Assembly (NCBI RefSeq): GCF_007859635.1
Contig: NZ_CP042306.1
Coordinates: 1,984,001 to 2,048,000 of the forward strand
Length of the DNA: 64,000 nt
Direction of reading: 5' to 3'
Source of the DNA: Sphingomonas panacisoli
Lineage (GTDB): Bacteria; Pseudomonadota; Alphaproteobacteria; Sphingomonadales; Sphingomonadaceae
Below the pieces are notes generated by a model. It made no database searches and had not been told where the DNA came from. It saw only the letters and a program-made list of their open reading frames with translations. Both the position numbers and the translations under genes were made by a program. The first letter of the stretch is position 1. The number at the start of each line of letters is the position of its first letter. This document shows, piece by piece, positions 49,936 to 64,000 of the stretch.

Positions 49936-50065
49936 TCCCGCGAATGCTCTGGAGGCCCTGTCCCGATCTGGGGCAAAGCGAAAAAATATCGTACGTTTAG
50001 TACAAACGGCTGATGCGAGCCCCCGACGAGCGACCCTAACCAATCGTTAACTTCGAGAGCCGGTG

Positions 50066-50087
50066 CGCCCCCGAGTCGGTGGGGGCG
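50066..50087 (+). promoter_or_regulatory. Leader hairpin of the PEP-CTERM gene
   Basis: CGCCCCC (50066-50072) and GGGGGCG (50081-50087) form a perfect 7-bp stem with an eight-base loop, 35 bases before the start codon. It may stabilise the long mRNA. The remaining 247-base gap to the LuxR gene holds the promoters of both divergent genes; no sigma-54 site is apparent. Confidence 0.4.
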
Positions 50088-50121
50088 ATCGGCGATTGTA
50101 TGGTTCATGAGGGGGTAGTTC

Positions 50122-53100
50122 ATGTCTTCGCTCGCGCTTCGCCGTTTGGCTCTCGCTTCGACCAGTCTCGCCATGGTGGCCGGACTCCCATCCGCCGCCC
50201 ACGCAGCCACGTGCAGCTGGCTGACCGCCGCCGGCAACTGGGCGACCACCGGCAATTGGAGCTGCGGCGTCGTACCCACGGGCGCGGATGACGTGGTCAT
50301 CACCATTGCGGGGGGCACGGTCAGCTTGACCGGCGCGGTCGGACAGGCGTCGACGCTGACGCTCGGCAGCGGCAACACGCTCAACGTTTCGGGGACCGAC
50401 CTCATCGTCGGCAGCACGCTGACGAACAACGGCACGATCACCTTCGGCGGAAACGCGCGGTTCCGCTCGGGTGGCACGCTCAACATCGACGGCACCGGCA
50501 CGATCGCGCTCGACAATAGCGGAGGCTATGCCCGCATCGGCGAGTTCGGCGGCACGTTCAACTTCGGGTCGGGCCAGACGATCCGCGGCCAGGGCGAACT
50601 CGGGTTCGGCCAAGGCACGTTCAGCAACGCCGGATTGGTGTCGGCCGACATTTCGGGCGCGACATTGGTCGTCGATACCGCCGGGGGCAATGGGTCGACG
50701 TCGTTCGTCAACACCGGCATCATGCAAGCGACCGGCGGCGGCATCCTCAGGTTCGACGGCGGCGGCTACGACAACAGCGCGGGCACCATCCGCGCGATCA
50801 ACGGCGGCACCGTCGCGATCGCCAACGACGCCCGCATCATCGGCGGGACGCTCAGCAATAGCACCGGCGGCATGCTGACGACCGCACCCGGCAACACATC
50901 CTATCTGCAGAACGTGACCGTTATGTCGGGCAGCAACCTCGTCATGGGCGCGAATTCGGATATCCTGGTCAACGGCGCGCTGACGATCAACGGCACCCTG
51001 ACGACGGCGGCGGCCACGCGTCTGCGCGCCGAGACGGCGAACGTCACGCTCAACGGCACGGGCGACATTCTGCTCGACAATTCGGTCAGCTATGCGCGCA
51101 TCGGCGAATTCGGCGGCAACTTCACGATCGCGGCAGGCCTGACGGTGCACGGCGCCGGCGAGCTCGGCTTCAACAACGCGAGCTTCACGAACAACGGGCT
51201 GGTGTCGGCGGATGCGTCGGGACGAACGCTTGTCGTCGATAGCGCTGGCAACAACGGCAGCACGTCGTTCGTCAACACCGCAATCATGCAGGCGACCGGC
51301 GGCGGCACGCTGCGGTTCGACGGTGGGGCCTACGACAATAATGCCGGCGTCATTCGCGCGACCAACAGCGGCATCGTGCTGATCAACAATGACGCACGGA
51401 TTATCGGTGGGACCCTGACGGGTAATACGGGCGGTACCATCACGACCAGCGGTACGTCCTTCCTGCAGAACGTGACATTGAGCGCGGGAACGCCGCTCAA
51501 CATGGGGGCGAACTCCGACATCATCATCAACGGCACCCTGACCAACAACGGCACGCTGAACATGGGCGCGAGCACGCGCCTGCGTGCCGAAGGCGGCGGC
51601 GTCGTGACGATCAACGGCACCGGCAATATCGTGATGAATGCGGGTCCCGGCGTCTACTCGCGGATCGGGGAGTTCGGCGGGACCTTCATCTTCGGATCGA
51701 ACCAGAACGTATCCGGATCGGGCGAGATCGGCTTCAACAACGCGCTGATCGCCAACAACAATTTGTTCACCTTCGCGGCGGGCAGTAACGTGAACATCGA
51801 CGGCGCCGGCGGCAATGGCGGCGTCAGCGGCGGACTGGGCGCGGGCGGCAACGCCGGGTTCCTCAACAACGGGACGATTCTGGCCGACAATAGCTCGGTC
51901 CATATTCTCGGCGGCCTGTACGACAACCAAACCGGCGTCATGCGCGCGATCAACGGCGGCACGGTCGAGATCAACAACGACGCGCGCATTGTCGGCGGCA
52001 CGCTGAGCACGGCGACGGGCGGCACTATCACAACGGCCGGAACGTCCTTCCTGCAGAACGCGACACTAGCGGCGGGCAGCAACCTCGTCATGGGCGCGAA
52101 CACGGATGTTCTCGTCAACGGCACGCTGACGACCAACGGCACGTTCCGGATGGCGGCCAGCACGCGGCTGCGCGCCGAGAGCGCCGGCGCCGTCACGCTG
52201 AACGGCACCGGCGACATCATCCTCGATAACAGCGCGCCCGGCTCCTATTCGCGCATCGGCGAATTCGGCGGCAATTTCACGCTCGCGTCAGGCCTGACGA
52301 TCCACGGCCAAGGCGAGATCGGATTCAACAATGCGAGCTTCACCAACAGCGCGTTGATCTCGGCGGACGTGTCCGGCGCGACGCTCGCGATCGATCCGGC
52401 CGGCGGCAACGGCACGGTATCGTTCATCAATAAGGCCATTCTGCAAGCGACCAACAGCGGTACGCTGTCGATCGGCGGCGGCGACTATGACAATGCGACG
52501 GGCATCATCCGGGCGGTCGGCAACGGCACCGTCATCCTGCAGAACGACGCGCGCATCATCGGCGGTTCGCTGACATCCAACACCGGCGGTCTGATCACCA
52601 ACGCGTCGGGCCAATACTTCCTGCAGAACACGACGCTGACCGCGGGCAGCAACTTGACGATGGGGGCCGCTTCCGACCTCCTCATCAACGGGACGCTGAC
52701 GGTCAACGGCACGCTGACGACGGCGGGCTCGACGCGGTTGCGCGCCGAGGGTGCGGGTGCCGTGACGATCAACGGCACCGGCAACGTCATCCTCGACAGC
52801 TCGGCCGGCTATTCGCGTATCGGCGAATTCGGCGGCGCCTTCACCTTCGGGTCGGGGCTGACCGTTCAGGGGTCAGGCGAGATCGGATTCAACAATTCCA
52901 TCCTGACCAACAACGGACTGATTTCCGCCGATGCCGGCACGGGGATGAACCTCGACGTCGCCGGCGGCAGCGGCGGCGTGAGCGGCGGGCTCGGCACCAG
53001 CGGCATTGCCGGATTGTTCAACACCGGCACCATCCAGGCCGCCAACGGCAAGACGATGTCGGTCCAGGGTGGCCTTTACGAAAATAGCGCAACCGGTACG

Positions 53101-54515
53101 ATCGGCGCGATCGGCGCGGACAGCCAGTTCGTGATGAACAACGACGCCAACCTAGCGAACCTGCAGGCGGGCAACGTCCTCAGCCTGGGCAACTACGTCT
53201 CATCGACGACCGGCGCGGCGAGCACGCTGTCGTTGCGCGGCACGGGAGCCAACAGCATCGAGACGATCGGCACGGGTGGTGCGACGACCGACACCATCGT
53301 CACGCTGTCCGGCGCGAATTCAGTGTTCAACGTCACCAACTTCAACACCGGCGTGAACACGACGCTCGACAGCACGCTGACCACGGTTGCTCGCTCGGGT
53401 CGCTTGAACATCCTGGGCGGTCGCGACTTCAACGTCGTCGGCGGGTCGGGCAGCCTGACCAATAACGGCATCGTCCAACTCGGCGGCGGCGCGCTGACCT
53501 CGACGGCGTCGGCCGGCACCAACACCGGCCTGATGACCGGGTTCGGGTCGATCGGGTTCAACATCACCAACAGTGGCACCGTAGAGGCGGCCGGCGGGAC
53601 GCTGGCGACGCGGACCATCACCGGCACGACCGGCACGATGCGCTCGAACGCCGGCGGGACGCTCGACATTTCGGGCGGTGCAGCGGACTCGACCACCGGG
53701 TTTCTGACCAACAACGGCAATCTGACGCTGGGCGCCCGGAGCGTCACCGTCACCAGCGACTATCAGAATGCGAACTTCGGATCGGGCAATGCGTTCGTCG
53801 CGCACTCCAACGTCAGCGGCAGCGGGCTGATCCTCGCCGCCAGCGCGACGATGGATCTGTCGGGACCAGGCTTGAGCGGCAACACGCTCAACGTCGGCAA
53901 CGTTCGCCTGGGCACAACTTCACCTCGACCGACCCCGATCTCGCGCCGGTCGCCCTCGCCGCGCAGCAAGTCAACTATGTCGGCACCGTCACCGAACTGG
54001 CGATCGCGGAAATCACCAAGGCTGCGGGTACGGGAACGCTCAGTGGATCGGCGCAGAACTACATCCTCGACCTCGGCTCGTTCGCCGCGGGGGCGGGATC
54101 GGTCTCGACCGACCTCGGGGTGCGCAACGCCAATCTGGGCCAGTCCTATTCGGAAATGCTGGCCGGCCTGTTCGCCTCGTCGGGTAGCACCGGCTACACC
54201 TTCGCGGACACGCCGTTCTCGGGCCTGACCGGGGGCAGCACCGACACGAACAACCTGCTGACCTTCAACTATACCGGGCTGGGTGCGGGTATCTACAACA
54301 ACACGCTGACCTTCAGCGGCCGCAGCCAGTATGCGGGCCTCAACGACTTCGCGCTGACGCCGATCACCATCACCGTCCGCGCGACGGTGACCGGTACCGG
54401 CCCGGTCGATCCCGGCGCGGTACCCGAGCCCGCGACCTGGACGATGATGATCCTCGGCTTAGGCCTGATCGGCGGGTCGATGCGTCGGCGCACCGCGCAG
54501 CGCACCGCCGCGTAA
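50122..54515 (+). CDS. Giant repeat protein with PEPxxWA-CTERM tail (apparent frameshift)
   Basis: Signal peptide 1-28 ('LPSAAHAATCSW'), then a Gly/Thr/Asn-rich beta-helix made of five long repeats, each containing 'ARIGEFGG' or 'SRIGEFGG'. The first frame continues to 54228 but becomes unlike the rest after 53910. The other frame, from CAC at 53913, continues sensibly ('HNFTSTDPDLAPVALAAQQV') and ends in 'AVPEPATWTMMILGLGLIGG' and 'MRRR', a PEP-CTERM signal for exosortase processing. Joined, the protein would be about 1,464 residues. The break is a missing base near GGG (53910-53912): sequencing error or real mutation. Likely surface or extracellular matrix protein. Confidence 0.85.
50527..52950 (+). 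repeat. Five long tandem repeats inside the PEP-CTERM gene
   Basis: The segment encoding (A/S)RIGEFGG recurs at about 50530, 51093, 51658, 52248 and 52812, giving repeat lengths of about 563, 565, 590 and 564 bases (188-197 residues). Each unit also contains 'NDARI.GGTL' and 'F(L)QN.TL..G..L.MGA.SD'. Units are diverged at the base level, so this is an old expansion and not a recent tandem copy. Confidence 0.75.
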
Positions 54516-55207: not shown

Positions 55208-56581
55208 ATGGAGCCGGGCGCGGCCGCCGACGACCGCGCTAATCGACGATTGCCGCGCATTCTCAGCGGCGCGATGGTCGTCGGGCTGACGCTATCGGCG
55301 CTATCGCCTGCGGCGTCGGTCTACGTGACGGGGTCGGAGATTCTCAAGCTCGCCGGGACCGGCGCGGCACTCGCGGTGCTGATCGGCGGTGCCGTTGCGG
55401 TGCTCGCCTCGCTGATCTACGCGGAATTGGGCTCGGCCTATCCGCGCGCAGGCGGCATCTACCCCGGCATCGATGCGATCCTCGGCCGCGGATGGGCGCT
55501 CGCGGTCATCGTCCTGACGCTGGTGACCTCGCCCGCTCTGCTGGCGTTCATTTCCCTCGGCCTGGCCAATTATATCGGCATCTATGCGCCGACCTGGCCC
55601 AAGCCGATCATCGCGCTCGTGCTGATCGTAGCCGCTGCGCTCATCGCCGCCACCAAGCTGAAGACGAGCATGCGCGTGGCCACGATCCTGCTGATGATCG
55701 AACTCGTCGCGGTCGGCGCGCTAGTCGCGATCGGCGTGTTCGATCACGCGCGCGGCGTAGGCGACGTGCTGCTGACGCCGGTATTGCCCGACAAGGCCGG
55801 CGGGCTGATGGCCACGCCCGTGGCAACCATGCTGATCGCCACCCTGTCGGGCGCCTATGCCTGCTCGGGCGCGGGCCTCGCGCTGTATTTCGCGGAGGAC
55901 ATGAAGGGACCCGCGCAAGCGATCGGCAAGCTCGTCGTCATCACCGGTGTGGTGACCGTCATGCTGGTCGCGGGCGCAGTGCTCGCGGTGTCGATGGGCG
56001 CGAGCGACCTTCCAGCCACGCTCGGCTCGGACAGCCCGATCGGGACGTACCTGGCCGCCGCGCTCGGCCCGCGTGTCGCGCCCGTGGCGCTCACAGTCGT
56101 CGTCCTCGCCATCTTCAACAATTTGATCGCGGGAATGCTCGCGTTCAGCCGCTTCCTCTTCTCGTCCGGCGTCGATCAGATCTGGCCGCACGGACTAAAC
56201 GTACGGCTGTCCGCCTTGCATCCGCAGTCGGGATCGCCCGTCTATGCGGTGCTTGCGCTATCGCTGGTCGCGGCGGCGATGCTGGTCATCGGCCAACGCA
56301 ATCTGCTTACGCTGCTCACGGCGGAACTCTTCAGCCCGCTTTCGGTCACGCTGGCGGTGATCGTCGGCCGGTGGCGGCGATTGACGGGCGTCGGGACATT
56401 CAGAGCACCGCTATTCCCACTGACGCCTCTTCTGATCCTCGCCGTGCTCGCCTGCTATTTCACGCTCAACTGGCTCGACCACGACCACGGCCGGATCGCA
56501 CTGATCTGTTTCGGCGTCATCGCGATCGCCTGCTACGCCGGCCACGCTATCCAGGCCCGCATAAACACACGCAGATCCTGA
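55208..56581 (+). CDS. APC-family amino-acid permease
   Basis: 457 residues from the ATG at 55208. About 12 membrane helices. 'LSALSPAASVYVTGSEILKL' (the G-S/G-E helix-1 break) and 'AELGSAYPRAGGIYPGIDAI' match the amino acid-polyamine-organocation family. Substrate unknown. It is in one transcript with small proteins A and B directly after the PEP-CTERM gene, an unusual setting. Confidence 0.87.
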   Translation: MEPGAAADDRANRRLPRILSGAMVVGLTLSALSPAASVYVTGSEILKLAGTGAALAVLIGGAVAVLASLIYAELGSAYPRAGGIYPGIDAILGRGWALAVIVLTLVTSPALLAFISLGLANYIGIYAPTWPKPIIALVLIVAAALIAATKLKTSMRVATILLMIELVAVGALVAIGVFDHARGVGDVLLTPVLPDKAGGLMATPVATMLIATLSGAYACSGAGLALYFAEDMKGPAQAIGKLVVITGVVTVMLVAGAVLAVSMGASDLPATLGSDSPIGTYLAAALGPRVAPVALTVVVLAIFNNLIAGMLAFSRFLFSSGVDQIWPHGLNVRLSALHPQSGSPVYAVLALSLVAAAMLVIGQRNLLTLLTAELFSPLSVTLAVIVGRWRRLTGVGTFRAPLFPLTPLLILAVLACYFTLNWLDHDHGRIALICFGVIAIACYAGHAIQARINTRRS

Positions 56582-56584
56582 TAT

Positions 56585-56605
56585 CCTCGGGCGACGCATC
56601 CGAGG
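56585..56605 (+). terminator. Weak hairpin after the permease gene
   Basis: CCTCGG (56585-56590) and CCGAGG (56600-56605) form a 6-bp stem with a nine-base loop, four bases after the stop. No T-run, so only a possible terminator. Confidence 0.3.
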
Positions 56606-56627
56606 CCCTATCGAAAACGATTGCGAT

Positions 56628-56641
56628 TGTTATCGATGTCA
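56628..56641 (+). promoter_or_regulatory. LacI-type operator in front of the metallohydrolase gene
   Basis: TGTTATCGATGTCA has the central CG and the near-palindromic arms of LacI-family sites. The surrounding 17 bases (56627-56643) are identical to those at 62709-62693 upstream of the trehalase gene, with the same orientation towards the gene. A possible -35 (ATGTCA, 56636-56641) overlaps it and a -10 (CATAAT, 56658-56663) lies 16 bases on, so binding should block transcription. Confidence 0.7.
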
Positions 56642-56683
56642 TTTATCTTTGTTTCTGCATAATTACACCGAGAGGATGACACG

Positions 56684-57736
56684 ATGCGCAGATCGCGAAC
56701 GCTTTTCCTGGCTGCGCTAGCCGTCACCACGCTGACGGCCGGGACCAGCGGCATCGCCGCCCCCGCGACCGACATCCCCACGCTCGCGACCCAAACGACC
56801 GAGGAAGGCCAGACGGTCATCTACGATCGCTATACTTGGCAACGGCGCGAACTCGACAAGCGGCTGCCGGTCACCGAGCCGTGGCCGGACGATTTCAAGA
56901 TCGGCGCGACCCTGCAACGCTACAAGCTCGACACGCCACCGATCCCGGCCACCCTTCCCCTCCCCGCACGCATCATGACCGACGTGTATCTGGTCAATGC
57001 CGAGCCCAATCTGGTCTATCTGATCGATGCCGGCGCCGATGGTCTGGTACTGGTCGATCCCGGACTGACCATGACCGTGCCGGCGATCCTCAAAAACGTG
57101 GAGAAGCTCGGCTTCTCGCCCAGCCAGATCAAATGGGTGATCAACACCCACGCGCATTTCGACCATTCGATGGCCGACGCCGCATTCCAGAAACTCGGTG
57201 CCAAGATCCTGGTCGGACGCCCCGACGTCGCTGCCGTCGAGAAAGGCACATACGTCACCGGAAAATACGCATTCCCCGCGCTGACGAAGGGCGTTTATCC
57301 GACGCTGAAGGTCGATTGGCCGGTGGACGACGGTGAGGAACTCAAACTCGGCAACAAGACCTTCGTCGCGATCGCCACGCCCGGGCACACGCCGGGTTCG
57401 ACCTGTTATTGGCTGACGATCGACGGAAAGAATATCCTGTTCGGCGGCGACACGATCCTGTTCGATTATCGGCTGGGTGCCAATTTGCCGAGCTTCGCCG
57501 ACGCGCAGGCTTATTTCACGTCGCTCAAGAAGCTCGCTTTCTACGGGCTCTATCCCAACACGACACGGTGGGACGTGCTGCTGCCCGGGCACGGCACGAT
57601 GGTGCTCGACCGCGCTTATATGGACGTGCTGAAGGGCTATCAGCAGGTCGAGCTCAACATGACCGACAACACTCAGGTCCAGGCGCTGCCGTTCGCCACC
57701 GACAATTATCGAAAGCTGATGTTCGGCCGTCCGTGA
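56684..57736 (+). CDS. Secreted metallo-beta-lactamase-fold hydrolase
   Basis: 350 residues with a signal peptide (about 1-25). Zinc ligands are intact: His156, His158, Asp160 and His161 in 'INTHAHFDHSMAD', a later His in 'ATPGHTPGSTCYW' and 'LLPGHGT'. The spacing resembles subclass B3 metallo-beta-lactamases, but the 60-residue extra N-terminal part and the sugar-locus setting argue for a different substrate. GAGAGGA is upstream. Followed 40 bases later by the oxidoreductase gene. Confidence 0.87.
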   Translation: MRRSRTLFLAALAVTTLTAGTSGIAAPATDIPTLATQTTEEGQTVIYDRYTWQRRELDKRLPVTEPWPDDFKIGATLQRYKLDTPPIPATLPLPARIMTDVYLVNAEPNLVYLIDAGADGLVLVDPGLTMTVPAILKNVEKLGFSPSQIKWVINTHAHFDHSMADAAFQKLGAKILVGRPDVAAVEKGTYVTGKYAFPALTKGVYPTLKVDWPVDDGEELKLGNKTFVAIATPGHTPGSTCYWLTIDGKNILFGGDTILFDYRLGANLPSFADAQAYFTSLKKLAFYGLYPNTTRWDVLLPGHGTMVLDRAYMDVLKGYQQVELNMTDNTQVQALPFATDNYRKLMFGRP

Positions 57737-57776
57737 TCGGGTTGCGTGCCGGCTCCGGACCGGGAAGGGACGGCGC

Positions 57777-58727
57777 ATGAGAATCGGTCTGCTCGGCGCA
57801 TCGGCGATTGCACCTGACGCCGTGATCCGTCCCGCGTCGGGGCGCGACGACGTGACGGTATCGACGGTCGCGGCGCGCGATCCCGACCGTGCGAGCGCCT
57901 ACGCAGCCGAGCACGGCATTCCAGCCGTCGCCGCCGACTATGCGGCACTGGTCGCGCGCGACGACGTCGACCTCGTCTATTGCGCGTTGCCGCCTGTCGC
58001 GCATCGGGCGGCGGTGAAGCTCGCTCTCGACGCGGGCAAGCCCGTGCTGCTCGAAAAGCCCTATGCGATGCACGCGGCCGACGCGCGGGCGATCGTCGCG
58101 ATGGCGGACGCCGCCGGGCTGCCGGTGATCGAGGCCTTTCATTATTTCTTCCACCCGCAATTCCAGCGCGCGCTGTCGCTCGTCGCCGATGGCGCGATCG
58201 GTACCGTCGTGAACGCCACGGCCTCGTTCGACGCCGCGATCCCGGACGAGCCGGGTCAGCTACGCTGGGACGCGGCACAGGGCGGCGGCGGGATGATGGA
58301 TCTGGGCTGTTATTGCGTCCACGCGCTGCGGTCCCTGCTCCGTGTCGAGCCGACCATACGTAGCGCTGGAGGTGTATTCCGCCACGGCGTCGATGCCACC
58401 TTGACGGCGCAGCTGGACTTCGCCGGCATACCTGCGACCGTCCATTGCTCGATGCTGGGCGGCACCGATCGCGTGCTCCGGCTTGAAGGAAACTCGGGTC
58501 GCCTGACGCTCGACCTGTTCATTGCGCCACACCGGGGCGGCCGGCTGGTACTCGAAACGGCGGCGGGGACGATCGTCGAGCCAGGCGACGCTCGCTCGAC
58601 CTACGACGCGCAACTCGACCATGTGATCCGCGTGTTTCGCAACGAAGAGGCGCCCAGGACCGGTGGCGCCGATGCGATCGCCAACATGGTGGTGATCGAC
58701 GCCTGCCGCGCGGCTGCGCACACCTAG
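57777..58727 (+). CDS. Gfo/Idh/MocA-family NAD(P)-dependent oxidoreductase
   Basis: 316 residues. 'MRIGLLGASAIAPDAVI' is the nucleotide-binding start, and 'VLLEKPYAMHAADARAIV' holds the catalytic EKP motif of the family. The C-domain ('GGGGMMDLGCYCVHALRSLL') is the substrate part with the His/Asp-type catalytic region. Acts on a sugar or sugar derivative, e.g. oxidising a hydroxyl. Its stop overlaps the convergent MFS gene by 4 bases. Likely cotranscribed with the metallohydrolase gene. Confidence 0.92.
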   Translation: MRIGLLGASAIAPDAVIRPASGRDDVTVSTVAARDPDRASAYAAEHGIPAVAADYAALVARDDVDLVYCALPPVAHRAAVKLALDAGKPVLLEKPYAMHAADARAIVAMADAAGLPVIEAFHYFFHPQFQRALSLVADGAIGTVVNATASFDAAIPDEPGQLRWDAAQGGGGMMDLGCYCVHALRSLLRVEPTIRSAGGVFRHGVDATLTAQLDFAGIPATVHCSMLGGTDRVLRLEGNSGRLTLDLFIAPHRGGRLVLETAAGTIVEPGDARSTYDAQLDHVIRVFRNEEAPRTGGADAIANMVVIDACRAAAHT

Positions 58728-59995
58728 GCGACGAGGTCCGGCGACAGCGGTTCGATCGACGCGAGCGGCGTGCGGCGCAGCATGCGCTCGAACACGATCG
58801 TCGCGACCAGCAGCAAAGCAAGCGGCGGCAGGATCGCGAGGAATGCCGCCTTCCCGCTCAACGCCGCGAAGATATGCCCGGTAATGAACGACCCGATCGT
58901 CCCGCCCAGCGCCGACGAAATCAGGATCAGCCCGGTCATCGCCGCATGCCGGTTTTGCGGCAGGCCGCTCAGCACCGACGAACACAGCGCAGGGTAGATC
59001 GGCGCGAGCAACAGGCCGACCACCGGCACGGCGAACGCCGCCGGCGGCAGGTCGAACCAGCCGGCGCGCAGCCCCGCTGCGCTCGGTTGCGTCAGGGGCA
59101 CGACGACCGCCAGAATGACGACCGACAGCGTCATGCCCACGCCCGTGGTCCACACCCACGGTACGCGTCGCAGCACCAGCCCTGCTCCAAGCCGACCGAC
59201 CGCGAGACCAGTCGCCCACAGGCTGGCAAGCTGCACCGCCAGCGCCGCCGGCAAGTTCATGACTTCACGGTTGAAGGTCGGCAACCAACTGCCGATGCTC
59301 TGTTCGACCAGCACGTCGATAAACGCGCAGACGATGAACGCGACGACGAACGGCCGCGCCAACAATCGCGGCATCGCAAGCCATTGCTCGCCGAGGCTCT
59401 GCGTATCGTTTTCCGCCAGACGCTCGTCGAGCGGCGCGAACGCGATCGCCGCGGCGACCAAGAGCGAGGCAATGCCCAGCACCCAATAGACGCCGAGCCA
59501 AGTCGGCCGCGCCGGATCGGCGGAATCGATGAACGCGCTGAACAGCCAATAGCTCGACAGCACCCCGATCATGAACATGCCCTCCAGGGCAGAGGTCATG
59601 CTGGCATGCTGCTTGCGGCTCTCGGTGATCAGCCCGACGATGACGTAGACCGACGTCTTGGCGATCGCGAACGCCGCGCCGACCACGACGAATTGCAGTT
59701 CGAGCAGCCAGAAAGCCGGCGCCAGCGGTACGGCGAAGCACGCCGCCGCGACCGCCAGCAATCCGAGCGCCGTCCCACGCCGATAGCCCAACCGCGCGAG
59801 CAATAGCACGACGACGAACGACGCCGCTGCCGCCGACAGATCCTTGCACCCCTCCAGCAACGCCGCCTGGGTCTTGGGCACCTGAAACGTCAGCACCGAC
59901 TGCAGGATCACCGCCCCGACGCTGTTCATCAGGATCGCGAACAGGAAGAAGGTCAGCGTGATCGCGCCGACGATGGGGAGGTGGCGGCGGTCCAT
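58724..59995 (-). CDS. MFS sugar transporter
   Basis: 423 residues, about 12 membrane helices. 'IVGAITLTFFLFAILMNSVG' opens helix 1 and a second Gly-rich half contains 'IYPALCSSVLSGLPQNRHAA' and 'SALGGTIGSFITGHIF', as in FucP/GlcNAc-type sugar transporters. Probably moves the sugar freed by trehalase or the esterase into the cell. Five bases after the esterase gene, so cotranscribed. Confidence 0.87.
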   Translation of the reverse strand: MDRRHLPIVGAITLTFFLFAILMNSVGAVILQSVLTFQVPKTQAALLEGCKDLSAAAASFVVVLLLARLGYRRGTALGLLAVAAACFAVPLAPAFWLLELQFVVVGAAFAIAKTSVYVIVGLITESRKQHASMTSALEGMFMIGVLSSYWLFSAFIDSADPARPTWLGVYWVLGIASLLVAAAIAFAPLDERLAENDTQSLGEQWLAMPRLLARPFVVAFIVCAFIDVLVEQSIGSWLPTFNREVMNLPAALAVQLASLWATGLAVGRLGAGLVLRRVPWVWTTGVGMTLSVVILAVVVPLTQPSAAGLRAGWFDLPPAAFAVPVVGLLLAPIYPALCSSVLSGLPQNRHAAMTGLILISSALGGTIGSFITGHIFAALSGKAAFLAILPPLALLLVATIVFERMLRRTPLASIEPLSPDLVA

Positions 59996-60000
59996 TCGCC

Positions 60001-61029
60001 TTATCTACCGAGGTGGCCGAGCAGGAATCGCGCCTGTATCTTGAAGGCGCGATCGGATTCGGGCGCGTCGATATATGCCCAGAACGCATGCGGCAGGCCG
60101 TCGAACGACACGAGCTTGTTCTCGACCCCCGCTTCCTCGAGCGCGAGGCAGAAGTTCGACGTAGAGCTCACGAAGACATCGCGCGAGCTGGTCATGCACA
60201 TGGTAGGCGGAAAGCCCTTCAGGTCGCCCAGGATCGGCGAGACCATGGGGTCCGCCGCCGACTGGCCTTTGGGCAAGTAAAACGCATTGAGTAGCCCGGC
60301 CAGCATCTCGTAGCTTTTGTTCGCCAATATCGAATCGCCGCGCCGCGACAGATCGAGGTCACCCGAAAATACCCCGAGGACGCTCGGCATCGGTAGCTTC
60401 GCGGCGCGGATTCGCATCAGCAGTTCCGGCCCCAAGATCGCCCCGGCCGACGTCCCGTAAATGCCGATATCCTTCGCCGCATGCGTCTTGAGCAACTCGC
60501 GATAGACCGCCAGCGCATCGTCGGCCTGGGCGGGAAACGGGCTTTCCGGCGCTTGGCGATAGAGGACAGCCACGACGGGCACGCCGGTCAGCGCCGCGAT
60601 CGGGATATTCTCCGTCAGCGAACCGGAATCGGTGACGAACCCGCCGCCGTGGAGGTTCAAGAAAACGCGCTTCGACGTGGCGGGCGTGCCCGCCTTGCGG
60701 ATGAGGCGGACCTTGACCCCACCCATCGTCGATTCGCTGATATCGACAGCATATTTCTTGCGCTGGAGCGCGCCGAAGGTTTGTTGATACTGGTCGATGA
60801 ACTTACGTTGATCGGCGAGCGACGGCATCTTGTTCGGATTGTCCGTGCTGCCGGTCGTGATCGCGGTGCGCGCCTGTTCGGACAGCGTTGCCGGCAAAGG
60901 CTGCATCGTCGGCGCCGGCGTCGGCATGGGGATGGGCGCTGCCGGCGCGGTCGATTGCGCCACGGCGTAGCTCGACATCGCGATCATCGGCAACAACGGC
61001 GCCGCGCGCCGAATCCAAGCCTTGGCCAT
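60001..61029 (-). CDS. Secreted HSL-family esterase
   Basis: 342 residues from the ATG at 61027-61029; the ATG at 61035 abuts the ribosome site AGAGGAG, which fits the later start. Signal peptide about 1-24. 'VFLNLHGGGFVTDSGS' (oxyanion) and 'IGIYGTSAGAILGPELL' (nucleophile) mark a hormone-sensitive-lipase-type esterase; 'DGLPHAFWAY' holds the His. Pro/Ala-rich linker near residues 30-45. It lies between trehalase (two-base gap) and the MFS gene, so it probably de-esterifies the sugar substrate. Confidence 0.88.
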   Translation of the reverse strand: MAKAWIRRAAPLLPMIAMSSYAVAQSTAPAAPIPMPTPAPTMQPLPATLSEQARTAITTGSTDNPNKMPSLADQRKFIDQYQQTFGALQRKKYAVDISESTMGGVKVRLIRKAGTPATSKRVFLNLHGGGFVTDSGSLTENIPIAALTGVPVVAVLYRQAPESPFPAQADDALAVYRELLKTHAAKDIGIYGTSAGAILGPELLMRIRAAKLPMPSVLGVFSGDLDLSRRGDSILANKSYEMLAGLLNAFYLPKGQSAADPMVSPILGDLKGFPPTMCMTSSRDVFVSSTSNFCLALEEAGVENKLVSFDGLPHAFWAYIDAPESDRAFKIQARFLLGHLGR

Positions 61030-61031
61030 CG

Positions 61032-62561
61032 TCATCTCCTCTGTTTGTCGCGCTCGGCCAGCAACGCCTTCACCACGCCGTTGGTCCAGCCAAACCCTTG
61101 CTGGTTGGGGTATTCGCCGCCGCTGGCCGGGCGGCCGTGTTCGATATCGTATTTCTCGAACAGCGCGCCGGTCTGGTCGTAAAACGCTTCGACCGTCGAT
61201 AGCCATCGATCGGCGATCATGTCCGCCAGCGCATCGTGTCCGTAACGCCGAAGCCCGGCGACCGCGATCCATTGCAGCGGCGCCCAGCCGTTCGGAGCAT
61301 CCCATTGCTGCGCCGTTTCGACCGTGGTCGTCCGCAGACCGCCCGGTGCGAGCAGATCGCGCTCGGCCGTGCGCGCGACGTCCGCTGCTTGTTCGGGCGT
61401 CGCAATACCGGCGAACAGCGGATATAGTCCGGCAGCGGTCGCGCCGGCGGTCGGCCGCCGTTCGATCCAATGCCAATCGCCGAACCGGCGCTCTTCCGCG
61501 ATCCAGCAATAATGCAGGATTGCCGCCGCCCGCTGATCGGCGCGTCGACGATAGTCGGCGGCCGTCGTCGCGTCGCCCAACGCCGCACTTTCTTCGGCGA
61601 TGTGGCGTTCACTGAGATACAGCAGGCAATTGAGATCGACCGGCACGATCGCGCAGGTATCGATCGTCGCCAGACTTGCAGCATCGCGCAGCCAGCGCGA
61701 ACTGAAGTCCCAGCCGCTTTCGGCAGCGGCGCGCAGGTCACGATACACATCGGCGGTCGGACGATCGGCACCGGCGGCGACCGCGACGTCCTCGGCATAC
61801 GCCTCGGGCCGCGGCGTGTCGGACGCGTCCCAATATCGATTGAGCACGGCGTCATCGGACAGCCGGACCACATGCGCGCTCGCACCCGGTGCGGCGAGAT
61901 GGTTCTCGCCTTGCATCCAATAGTCATGTTCGCGGCGTAGTGCCGCGAGACGGCGGCGATGCACGTCGGGCGCCGGATCGCGTGACAGTTGCGTCATCAG
62001 CGCGAGGAACGGCGGCTGCGATCGCGACAGGAAATACGACCGCGTGCCGTTGGGGATATGTCCGTACCGCTCGATCAGGGACACGAAATTGTCGAGCATC
62101 GACTCGACCAGCGCATCCCGCCCGTCGATCGCCAGCCCCAGCATCGTAAAGTAGCTGTCCCAGTAATATATCTCGCGAAACCGCCCGCCGGGGATGACGT
62201 ACGGCGACGGCAGCGGAAGCGCGGACGACCATGGCCCACCCGGTTGCGCGGTGACGACGAGATCGTCCCACAACGCGGCGATATGGTCGCCGATGCTTGC
62301 CTGATCATCGGGTGGATCGAGCCGAGGTGGTGGTGGCGGATCGAAATTCCGTTCGACGAACGCGCGAAGTTCATCGTCGCCTTGCGGCCGTTGCGCGTCC
62401 CATGCCGCCATGATGTCGGCCGGCGCGCGGCGCGGCTCCATGTCGGGAAAGGTCTTGCCGTCGCCGAACAACCGCCGCTGCTGTACCGCGACGAACAGAT
62501 CGCCGAAGAGTTCGTCGGGTCCGGGCGGCACGGAATTAGCAACAGGGACGTGACGATTCAT
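61032..62561 (-). CDS. treF: Trehalase, glycoside hydrolase family 37
   Basis: 509 residues from the ATG at 62559-62561 (a TTG at 62582 would add seven residues). Both trehalase signatures are present: 'PGGRFREIYYWDSY' (124-137) and 'QWDAPNGWAP' (419-428). Expected catalytic residues: Asp285 in 'ESGWDFSSRW' and Glu469 in 'ALFEKYDI'. It cuts alpha,alpha-trehalose into two glucose molecules. No signal peptide, so probably cytoplasmic (TreF type); the symbol is by function only. First gene of the minus-strand unit, with two LacI-type sites upstream. Confidence 0.93.
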   Translation of the reverse strand: MNRHVPVANSVPPGPDELFGDLFVAVQQRRLFGDGKTFPDMEPRRAPADIMAAWDAQRPQGDDELRAFVERNFDPPPPPRLDPPDDQASIGDHIAALWDDLVVTAQPGGPWSSALPLPSPYVIPGGRFREIYYWDSYFTMLGLAIDGRDALVESMLDNFVSLIERYGHIPNGTRSYFLSRSQPPFLALMTQLSRDPAPDVHRRRLAALRREHDYWMQGENHLAAPGASAHVVRLSDDAVLNRYWDASDTPRPEAYAEDVAVAAGADRPTADVYRDLRAAAESGWDFSSRWLRDAASLATIDTCAIVPVDLNCLLYLSERHIAEESAALGDATTAADYRRRADQRAAAILHYCWIAEERRFGDWHWIERRPTAGATAAGLYPLFAGIATPEQAADVARTAERDLLAPGGLRTTTVETAQQWDAPNGWAPLQWIAVAGLRRYGHDALADMIADRWLSTVEAFYDQTGALFEKYDIEHGRPASGGEYPNQQGFGWTNGVVKALLAERDKQRR

Positions 62562-62694
62562 CGCGCCGCCGCTCCGAGGCAAGTCACGATGACGCTGAAA
62601 CGGAACATCGACGGCGTCACGCGCAAGGTACCGGCCCCTCCTGCATCGGCCAGCCAGTGCGGCTCGCCAATGACGGGACAGAGCTACTCGCGAA

Positions 62695-62708
62695 TGACAT
62701 CGATAACA
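62695..62708 (-). promoter_or_regulatory. LacI-type operator 1 upstream of the trehalase operon
   Basis: Read on the minus strand this is TGTTATCGATGTCA, identical to the site at 56628-56641; 17 consecutive bases (62693-62709) are shared. It lies 132 bases upstream of the trehalase start. A minus-strand TTGTTA (-35-like) overlaps it. Confidence 0.7.
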
Positions 62709-62718
62709 AGAGCGATAA

Positions 62719-62732
62719 TGATATCGATACCA
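62719..62732 (-). promoter_or_regulatory. LacI-type operator 2 upstream of the trehalase operon
   Basis: TGATATCGATACCA is a second near-palindrome with the same ATCGAT core. Its start is 24 bases from that of operator 1, so both may be occupied together on one side of the helix. It lies just downstream of the LacI stop. Confidence 0.6.
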
Positions 62733-62748
62733 ACGAACTGATAAAGCG

Positions 62749-63771
62749 TCAGTCGGCTTGCGTGGAAGCTCGAACGATCAGTTCGACGGGCAGCGTTTCG
62801 GGGTTAGGTTGGGTACCCTCGACCCACGCGAGCATCGTCTCCCCCAACAACTCGCCGGCGCGCTGCCAATCCTGCCGGACCGTCGTCAGCGGGATGGCGG
62901 CGTTCGCCGCTGCCGGAATGCCGTCATAGCCGATCACCACCATGTCATCGGGGATCGCGATATTCCGCGCGATCAACGCATCCATCGCGCCGAGCGCGAT
63001 CATGTCGCTTGCGCCGACGATCGCATCGCCGCGCCAGCCGCCCTCGATCGCCGCATCCACGGCGGCGCGCCCGGCGAGCATCCCGAACTCGCAGGCGCGC
63101 GCGGTCACGCGCATCGTTGCGCCACCGCCCTGCTCGAGGCCGGTCAACCGGTCGGCGACTTCCTGATGTTCCTGGTCGCCCAGAAACAGCACGTCGCGAC
63201 GACCCAGCGCCGCAAGATGCTGTCCGATCAACGCGCCGCCCCGACGATTGTCGCTGCCGATCGTGATCCAGTCGCCGTCGGTCGCCCGCCGCGCACCCCA
63301 GACGACGAACGGCAGGCCCATTTCGCTGACCTGGCCGAGCAGTGTATCGTCAGTCCCCTGCCCCAGAAAGATGATGCCGTCGGAATCATGGTCGCCCGAT
63401 GCCAACACCTGATCCGCGGTCGTTAGAACCAATCGGTAATTCGCCGCCGTCAGGCATTGCAGCAGTCCACCGACCAGCCCCAAGAAGATCGGGTCGGACA
63501 TCGTGCGGTCGGCGGTCGGGGTCATGTTGATGACCACCGTGACGCTATGATTACGCCGCAGCCGCAGATTGCGCGCCGCGGTGTTAAGCCGATAACCGTG
63601 CGTCCGAGCCAATTGCTGGATCTGTTCGCGCACCGGCGCGCGAACCAGCGCGCTGTCCTTCAACGCGCGCGACACCGTGATCTTGGACACACCCGCCAGT
63701 TCGGCCAGGTCATCCATCGTCATGCGGCGGCCCGTCCCTGCGAGCTCACTGGCCGATACGCGTTTCGTCAT
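62749..63771 (-). CDS. LacI-family transcriptional regulator
   Basis: 340 residues. DNA-binding domain about 17-66: 'TMDDLAELAGVSKITVSRAL' and the hinge region 'LNTAARNLRLRRNHSVTVVI'. The rest is a periplasmic-binding-protein-like sensor domain with 'DGIIFLGQGTDDTLLGQV' and 'IVGASDMIALGAMDALIARN'. Likely represses the neighbouring units until the sugar (trehalose, glucose or a derivative) binds. Located between the trehalase operon and a TonB-dependent receptor, the standard arrangement of sugar loci in sphingomonads and relatives. Confidence 0.93.
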   Translation of the reverse strand: MTKRVSASELAGTGRRMTMDDLAELAGVSKITVSRALKDSALVRAPVREQIQQLARTHGYRLNTAARNLRLRRNHSVTVVINMTPTADRTMSDPIFLGLVGGLLQCLTAANYRLVLTTADQVLASGDHDSDGIIFLGQGTDDTLLGQVSEMGLPFVVWGARRATDGDWITIGSDNRRGGALIGQHLAALGRRDVLFLGDQEHQEVADRLTGLEQGGGATMRVTARACEFGMLAGRAAVDAAIEGGWRGDAIVGASDMIALGAMDALIARNIAIPDDMVVIGYDGIPAAANAAIPLTTVRQDWQRAGELLGETMLAWVEGTQPNPETLPVELIVRASTQAD

Positions 63772-63863: not shown

Positions 63864-64000
63864 CTAGAAGCGCGCGCGGAGCGACACGCCGTACATCCGC
63901 GGCTCACCGAAGATCGCCGTACTGTACCCCGTGGCGTTGTATTGCTGGATCACGTTGGTGCGATAGGTCTTGTTGGTCAGGTTGGTGGCAAACACCGACA
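63864..64000 (-). CDS. TonB-dependent receptor, C-terminus only
   Basis: The last 45 residues of an outer-membrane receptor. The minus strand encodes 'VFATNLTNKTYRTNVIQQYN' and ends 'FGEPRMYGVSLRARF' with stop at 63864-63866. The pattern 'N.LT...Y....' followed by 'G.PR.YG..L...F' is the canonical end of TonB-dependent receptor barrels, including the terminal Phe. The rest lies outside the window. It likely imports the sugar or oligosaccharide handled by the locus. Confidence 0.9.
   Translation of the reverse strand, partial: SVFATNLTNKTYRTNVIQQYNATGYSTAIFGEPRMYGVSLRARF

What the first reader, a model, noticed from the sequence alone, without database searches (positions are those of the whole stretch)
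56627..62732. Identical 17-base operator at two promoters of a trehalose locus
Seen: the 17 bases at 56627-56643 (upstream of the metallohydrolase/oxidoreductase pair) are the same as those on the minus strand at 62709-62693 (upstream of trehalase), in the same direction relative to their genes. A second site with the same ATCGAT core lies at 62719-62732. Known: LacI-family sites are near-palindromes with a central CG. Inference: the LacI protein at 62749-63771 represses both convergent units, so metallohydrolase, Gfo/Idh, MFS, esterase and trehalase form one regulon flanked by its operators.
Basis: partly seen in the sequence, partly recalled or inferred. Interest (0 to 1): 0.72.

Follow-up and report, generated by a model that had tools for sequence, protein, structure and literature searches.

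The report
LacI operators of a trehalose regulon
A sugar-responsive repressor in a Sphingomonas bacterium appears to control a small gene cluster through six near-identical DNA sites, and related clusters suggest that the cluster feeds on trehalose carrying chemical decorations such as acyl groups, which would be an undescribed nutrient route.

Summary
In detail: TTGTTATCGATGTCATT lies at 56627-56643(+) and 62709-62693(-), with a related palindrome at 62719-62732. A shared 17-mer in 64 kb is weak evidence alone; comparative data make it strong. The palindrome TGNYATCGATRNCA has 7 exact sites in 3.40 Mb, 6 of them within 10.9 kb here, before four units: MBL-Gfo, treA-est1-MFS and, beyond the window end, a TonB-dependent receptor (TBDT) and a second esterase. 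A PWM trained without this locus ranks these six first (23-30 bits; next 12.7). Orthologous LacI loci carry the same sites (57 exact in 44 loci, 0.25 expected).

Gene content points beyond plain trehalose: 16 of 17 loci with GH37 trehalase also encode HSL-type esterases, two add a sulfatase, one a GH106 rhamnosidase with its own operator. I infer a regulon for decorated trehalose. Tandem-operator spacing is nearly fixed per lineage: 22-24, 66-67 or 14 bp. Binding, expression and substrate are untested.

The parts
56628..56641 (+). Operator O1 (TGTTATCGATGTCA), 42 bp before the MBL start codon
   Evidence: Exact; PWM 30.3 bits; site at the same promoter in L114
56684..57736 (+). MBL-fold metallohydrolase gene, signal-like N terminus
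   Evidence: PF00753 84 bits; subclass B3 beta-lactamase model 120 bits, below its cut-off of 240; N terminus
57777..58727 (+). Gfo/Idh/MocA oxidoreductase gene
   Evidence: PF22725 and PF01408 above cut-off
58724..59995 (-). MFS transporter gene
   Evidence: PF07690 79 bits
60001..61029 (-). est1: HSL-type esterase (GTSAG subfamily), signal-like N terminus by eye
   Evidence: NF058649 411 bits, cut-off 380; sequence
61032..62561 (-). treA: GH37 trehalase, no evident signal peptide
   Evidence: PF01204 475.5 bits; PDB 2jf4 E. coli periplasmic trehalase E 7e-141; N terminus
62695..62708 (-). Operator O2 (TGTTATCGATGTCA toward treA)
   Evidence: Exact; PWM 28.6 bits
62719..62732 (-). Operator O3 (TGGTATCGATATCA toward treA), 24 bp from O2; degenerate in L114
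   Evidence: Exact; PWM 28.8 bits; spacing; L114 alignment
62749..63771 (-). LacI-family regulator gene, 92 bp behind the TBDT gene
   Evidence: PF00356 and PF13377 above cut-off; L114 orthologue 83%
63864..64000 (-). 3' end of the TBDT gene; it goes on to L069:14233 (window-equivalent 66233). Beyond it lie operators at window-equivalent 66315 and 66338 (TBDT) and 67508 (est2), and est2 at about 66380-67471
   Evidence: PF00593 133.9 bits for the TBDT, PF07859 114.5 bits for est2; est2 NF058650 468 bits, cut-off 410; sites

Best explanation
The repeated 17-mer is an operator of the adjacent LacI-family protein. Six operators control a local regulon of four units over about 11 kb: MBL-Gfo; treA-est1-MFS; the TBDT gene with lacI behind it; and est2. 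Most likely the LacI dimer sits on the TGNYATCGATRNCA palindromes and represses until a sugar inducer releases it, with a second dimer helping at the tandem sites of treA (24 bp) and TBDT (23 bp). Proposed physiology: the TBDT imports a trehalose derivative across the outer membrane, exported esterases (in relatives also a sulfatase or a rhamnosidase) strip its decorations, the MFS protein carries the sugar inward and the trehalase, which lacks an evident signal peptide, cleaves it to glucose. Shown by computation: sites, clustering, conservation, protein families, orthologous gene content. Inferred: binding by this LacI, repression, inducer, substrate, order of steps. The confidence below is for the operator/regulon part; I put the decorated-trehalose substrate at about 0.4.
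For: 6 of 7 exact genomic palindromes within 10.9 kb; a PWM trained on other loci ranks the six first, 23.4-30.3 bits, next 12.7, best of 100 shuffles 22.1; L114 has exact sites at the same four promoters and keeps the TBDT double site with its spacer; 57 exact sites in 44 orthologue loci against a shuffle mean of 0.25, and 0 in 12 paralogue-LacI loci; in 12 same-genus genomes with this LacI 29 of 34 exact sites lie at its locus, against 6 sites in 20 genomes without it. Substrate: 16 of 17 GH37 loci carry HSL-type esterase, 2 a sulfatase, 1 a GH106 gene with an operator, 7 of 17 a CoA-transferase or acyl-CoA ligase.
Against: No binding or expression data. In G233 (L159) no exact site was found, though near-matches occur. 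At PWM threshold 12, 4 of 12 control loci have hits, and L074 and L076 have tandem sites just before their own lacI gene, so the motif is shared with related LacI proteins; the host has at least six other LacI-like genes. Substrate: L138 has GH37 but no esterase; the L159 trehalase looks exported; 3 of 23 GH65 loci also have an esterase; GH65 relatives may act on kojibiose or maltose; roles of MBL and Gfo are unexplained; loci are related, so counts are not independent.
Confidence: 0.9

Rival explanations
1. The regulon is real but serves plain trehalose or another alpha-linked diglucose; the esterases are passengers or act on unrelated esters.
For: GH37 trehalase close to E. coli TreA; class C loci with the same LacI clade and motif use GH65 enzymes and mostly lack esterases; L138 has GH37, MFS and a site but no esterase.
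Against: Esterase in 16 of 17 GH37 loci, with two to four per class B locus; sulfatase in two loci; 5 of 11 same-genus genomes with the GH37-type cluster have a further GH37 match.
Confidence: 0.45
2. The six sites are bound by a different LacI-family protein of the genome rather than by the one encoded here.
For: The host has six other LacI-like matches, the best at 37% identity; related LacI proteins have related sites in L074 and L076.
Against: Sites track this LacI: 29 of 34 exact sites at its locus in 12 genomes, 6 in 20 genomes without it; sites sit next to its orthologues across genera.
Confidence: 0.07
3. The shared 17-mer is a chance match.
For: Two other inverted 18-base pairs exist in the window.
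Against: Clustering, conservation and the independently trained PWM.
Confidence: 0.01

Closest known systems
Local LacI-family sugar regulons as reviewed by Ravcheev et al. 2014 (PMC4052901; abstract and passages seen)
   Same: Even palindromes with a central CG, several operators over a small sugar gene cluster, tandem sites with a preferred spacing near 22 bp
   Different: No match in the main text for sphingo-, Novosphingobium, Dyella, TonB or esterase; spacings of 14 and 66-67 bp in sister lineages; supplement and RegPrecise not seen
ThuR trehalose regulon of Rhizobiales
   Same: LacI-family, trehalose use in alphaproteobacteria
   Different: Motif natcnAAAnCGnTTTngatt and an ABC transporter operon (PMC4052901 passage); here TGNYATCGATRNCA, MFS and TBDT
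E. coli TreR
   Same: LacI-family, trehalose (function recalled)
   Different: TIGR02405 scores 47.9 bits, cut-off 357.35
Carbohydrate loci built on TonB-dependent receptors in Xanthomonas (PMC1790865; search listing only; layout recalled)
   Same: TBDT, inner-membrane transporter, hydrolase and local regulator
   Different: Trehalase with esterases as the enzyme set

Membership tests
LacI-family regulator | LacI HTH plus periplasmic-binding-like domain | tested here: met
   PF00356 44 bits (27) and PF13377 76.3 bits (26.5)
LacI-family regulator | Palindromic operators with central CG near its gene | tested here: met
   criterion from PMC4052901
LacI-family regulator | Specific DNA binding released by an effector | not testable with these tools
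   Needs experiment
TreR (E. coli type) | Score above the TIGR02405 cut-off | tested here: not met
   47.9 against 357.35 bits
ThuR | ThuR motif | tested here: not met
   Motifs differ by inspection
GH37 trehalase (treA) | Pfam Trehalase above cut-off; motifs PGGRFRE and QWDxPNGWAP and the catalytic-region stretches SGWD and GGEYP (roles recalled) | tested here: met
   475.5 bits; alignment to 2jf4
HSL-type esterases (est1, est2) | NCBIfam subfamily cut-off | tested here: met
   est1 411 (380); est2 468 (410)
Subclass B3 metallo-beta-lactamase (MBL gene) | NF033105 cut-off | tested here: not met
   120.2 against 240 bits
TonB-dependent receptor | Plug and beta-barrel domains | tested here: met
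   PF07715 38.5 and PF00593 133.9 bits

The most novel reading that the evidence does not exclude
This LacI clade governs a widespread, undescribed route by which sphingomonads and relatives use decorated trehalose (acyl esters, in some lineages sulfate or rhamnose), for example actinobacterial-type trehalose glycolipids (source recalled): TBDT import, stripping of decorations, then trehalase, with freed acids activated by CoA enzymes in some loci. The regulator kept its half-site while three lineages fixed different tandem-operator spacings (22-24, 66-67 and 14 bp).
Probability: 0.4. Interest if true: 0.65.

Novelty: new member of a known kind. Interest (0 to 1): 0.45.

Why it matters
It gives a well-supported operator motif and gene set for a LacI clade found in alpha-, beta- and gammaproteobacteria whose members bear only generic names where the 120 listed hits show one. 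If the substrate inference holds, decorated trehalose becomes a recognisable nutrient class with a marker gene set. Three nearly fixed operator spacings around one half-site would make a compact natural comparison of how LacI dimers cooperate at 14, 22-24 and 66-67 bp.

Tried and rejected
Considered and rejected or left open: (1) Coincidence or dispersed repeat: rejected by clustering and conservation. (2) TreR or ThuR membership: score and motif do not fit. (3) Promoter overlap as the reason for the constant orientation of the 14-mer: scans gave one weak match in each of two regions and none in the third, in no common register; left open. (4) Rfam elements in L069:4400-15700: none at gathering scores. 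(5) A second operator beside O1: no other place with a positive PWM score in the stretch printed, about 56544-56692. (6) The seventh exact palindrome (G000:C1:790200) lies inside an ORF that I read by eye as an arylsulfatase (no family search run on it): treated as chance. (7) Beta-lactamase reading of the MBL gene: below cut-off.

Literature: searches (open-access library; two searches found no paper) showed no title or abstract describing this regulon or a decorated-trehalose route; the listings were capped. Of one paper (PMC4052901) I saw the abstract start and passages; of all others the listing only.

Errors and limits: the TBDT query was read in the wrong frame (9 stops), so that call cannot show TBDT; corrected. 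One search lists only part of its places and misses three of the four exact 14-mer copies; one search shows them. In one search the est1 line shows only upstream starts, so its signal-like N terminus is judged by eye. L074 was used as a paralogue control but has near-matching tandem sites. L162 and L163 were left out of the gene-content counts. Some loci are short contigs (L125, L129, L139, L140, L144), so missing genes there mean little. The 20 LacI-negative genomes are the 20 listed of 48 without a match at E 1e-60. The 12-bit threshold was my choice. The tree has long rows and an arbitrary root; I base no claim on it. Gene content outside the loci given to Pfam rests on tblastn matches. No structure prediction was run.

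Full report
OBSERVATION. The 17-mer TTGTTATCGATGTCATT is at 56627-56643 on the plus strand and, reverse-complemented, at 62693-62709; both copies read toward their genes. A related palindrome sits at 62719-62732. By itself a 17-base match is not remarkable in 64 kb: outside an internally repetitive ORF and a GCC run, two other inverted pairs of 18 bases occur in this window.

GENOME-WIDE. In the host genome (one contig, 3,403,025 bases) the palindrome TGNYATCGATRNCA has seven exact sites. Six lie between 2040628 and 2051521: window 56628, 62695 and 62719, plus 2050315, 2050338 and 2051508 beyond the window end. I drew the pattern after seeing four of these; 2050315 and 2051508 are independent of it. 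The seventh lies inside an ORF that reads by eye as a sulfatase, 1.25 Mb away. The 14-mer TGTTATCGATGTCA occurs exactly four times, all here, each time reading toward the downstream gene.

ANATOMY. Colinear on the minus strand run est2, TBDT, lacI, treA, est1 and MFS, with operators before est2 (one), TBDT (two, 23 bp apart) and treA (two, 24 bp apart). Convergent with them run MBL and Gfo with one operator. lacI lies 92 bp behind the TBDT gene with no exact site of its own, so autoregulation by read-through is likely (inference). Families: TonB-dependent receptor; HSL-type esterases above their subfamily cut-offs; GH37 trehalase close to E. coli TreA; MFS_1, Gfo/Idh/MocA and an MBL-fold protein below the beta-lactamase cut-off. 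est2 and MBL have signal-like N termini, est1 and TBDT likewise by eye; treA has none evident.

CONSERVATION. Four unnamed same-genus genomes have contigs of the same length as named Sphingomonas records, so the host is a Sphingomonas (inference). A Sphingomonas MAG locus (L114, LacI 83%) keeps all eight genes, has exact sites at the same four promoters and a fifth before a GH106 gene upstream of MBL. Its TBDT double site keeps the 23-bp spacing and the spacer ATTTTCTG, though one of the two sites has a mismatch; its distal treA site is degenerate. Across 44 further non-redundant orthologue loci there are 57 exact sites, 36 loci with at least one, against a mean of 0.25 (maximum 2) in 20 shuffles of 856 kb; 12 paralogue-LacI loci have none. 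A PWM from those 44 loci gives the six sites 23.4-30.3 bits; the next best place in 88 kb scores 12.7 and the best of 100 shuffles 22.1. In 12 same-genus genomes with this LacI, 29 of 34 exact sites lie at its locus (one genome, G233, has none); 20 genomes without it have 6. Against exclusivity, at 12 bits 4 of 12 control loci have hits, and L074 and L076 hold tandem sites just before their own lacI. G227 (L158, LacI 41%) shares 21 consecutive bases, CGATTGTTATCGATGTCATTT, with operator O1.

ARCHITECTURES (46 loci after dropping duplicates and two distant ones). A: this locus and L114. A': L158, L159 and L161, with LacI, TBDT, esterase, MFS and GH37; L158 and L161 also have a sulfatase between TBDT and esterase, related to N-sulphoglucosamine sulphohydrolase and keeping a CSSSR motif (catalytic meaning recalled). 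B: 13 loci from Sphingomonas, Sphingobium, Novosphingobium, Sphingopyxis, a Caulobacter MAG and Paraburkholderia, with two to four esterase genes each; GH37 in 11 of 13 (L144 is a short contig; L134 instead has a GH15 protein with a trehalase-like N-terminal domain). C: 23 loci of Dyella, Rhodanobacter, Oleiagrimonas, Pseudoduganella, Hankyongella and others with GH65, mostly with HAD, TBDT and MFS genes. Five loci are unassigned. Esterase: 16 of 17 GH37 loci, 3 of 23 GH65 loci, 2 of 6 others; CoA-transferase or acyl-CoA ligase: 7 of 17 and 0 of 23. The Fisher p of 3e-7 treats related loci as independent and overstates the case.

OPERATOR SPACING. With leave-one-out PWMs, 43 of 46 loci have a hit above 12 bits. 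A tandem pair is spaced 14 bp in 21 of 23 GH65 loci (L143: 21 bp; L145: none within 80 bp), 66-67 bp in 12 of 13 class B loci, and 22-24 bp in 4 of 5 class A/A' loci. In class B the weaker site of the pair sits in the divergent gap between esterase and TBDT genes. Ravcheev et al. 2014 report family-wide peaks at 13, 22 and 32 bp (PMC4052901, passage), so the 22-24 bp class is ordinary; near-fixation of three spacings around one half-site is the part I find notable.

FUNCTION. The operator/regulon reading is well supported short of experiment. The substrate is inferred: trehalase fixes the core sugar, and recurrent esterases, a sulfatase in two loci and a rhamnosidase in one fit a decorated trehalose; the CoA enzymes fit activation of released acids. 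In 5 of 11 same-genus genomes with the GH37-type cluster a further GH37 match exists, so the cluster may not be for plain trehalose. Against this: L138 has no esterase; the L159 trehalase looks exported; GH65 relatives may act on kojibiose or maltose; MBL and Gfo have no assigned role.

VERDICT.

Noticed in passing
window 62558-62626, minus strand: A 22-codon TTG-start reading frame runs into treA and overlaps its start codon as ATGA; L114 has a frame of the same length at the same place, with little amino-acid similarity. Possible translational coupling; two sequences cannot show it.
   Followed up: partly
window 58724-58727: The convergent Gfo and MFS genes overlap by 4 bases (ctag) at their stop codons; the L114 pair overlaps by 4 as well.
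   Followed up: no
window 50122-54228: Long repetitive, autotransporter-like ORF (by eye); 55 of the 63 shared 17-mers of the window lie within 50000-54300. Its last part reads like an out-of-frame tail.
   Followed up: no
L124 and the other GH65 loci, about 200 bp before lacI: Two abutting palindromes 14 bp apart in 21 of 23 GH65 loci, close to the 13-bp class that PMC4052901 calls hard to reconcile with known dimer structures.
   Followed up: partly
L074 9009 and 9031; L076 7492 and 7515: Weaker tandem sites (22 and 23 bp) just before the lacI genes of more distant relatives.
   Followed up: no
L134 13096-14925: The Paraburkholderia locus lacks GH37 but has a GH15 protein with a trehalase-like N-terminal domain beside the esterases.
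   Followed up: no
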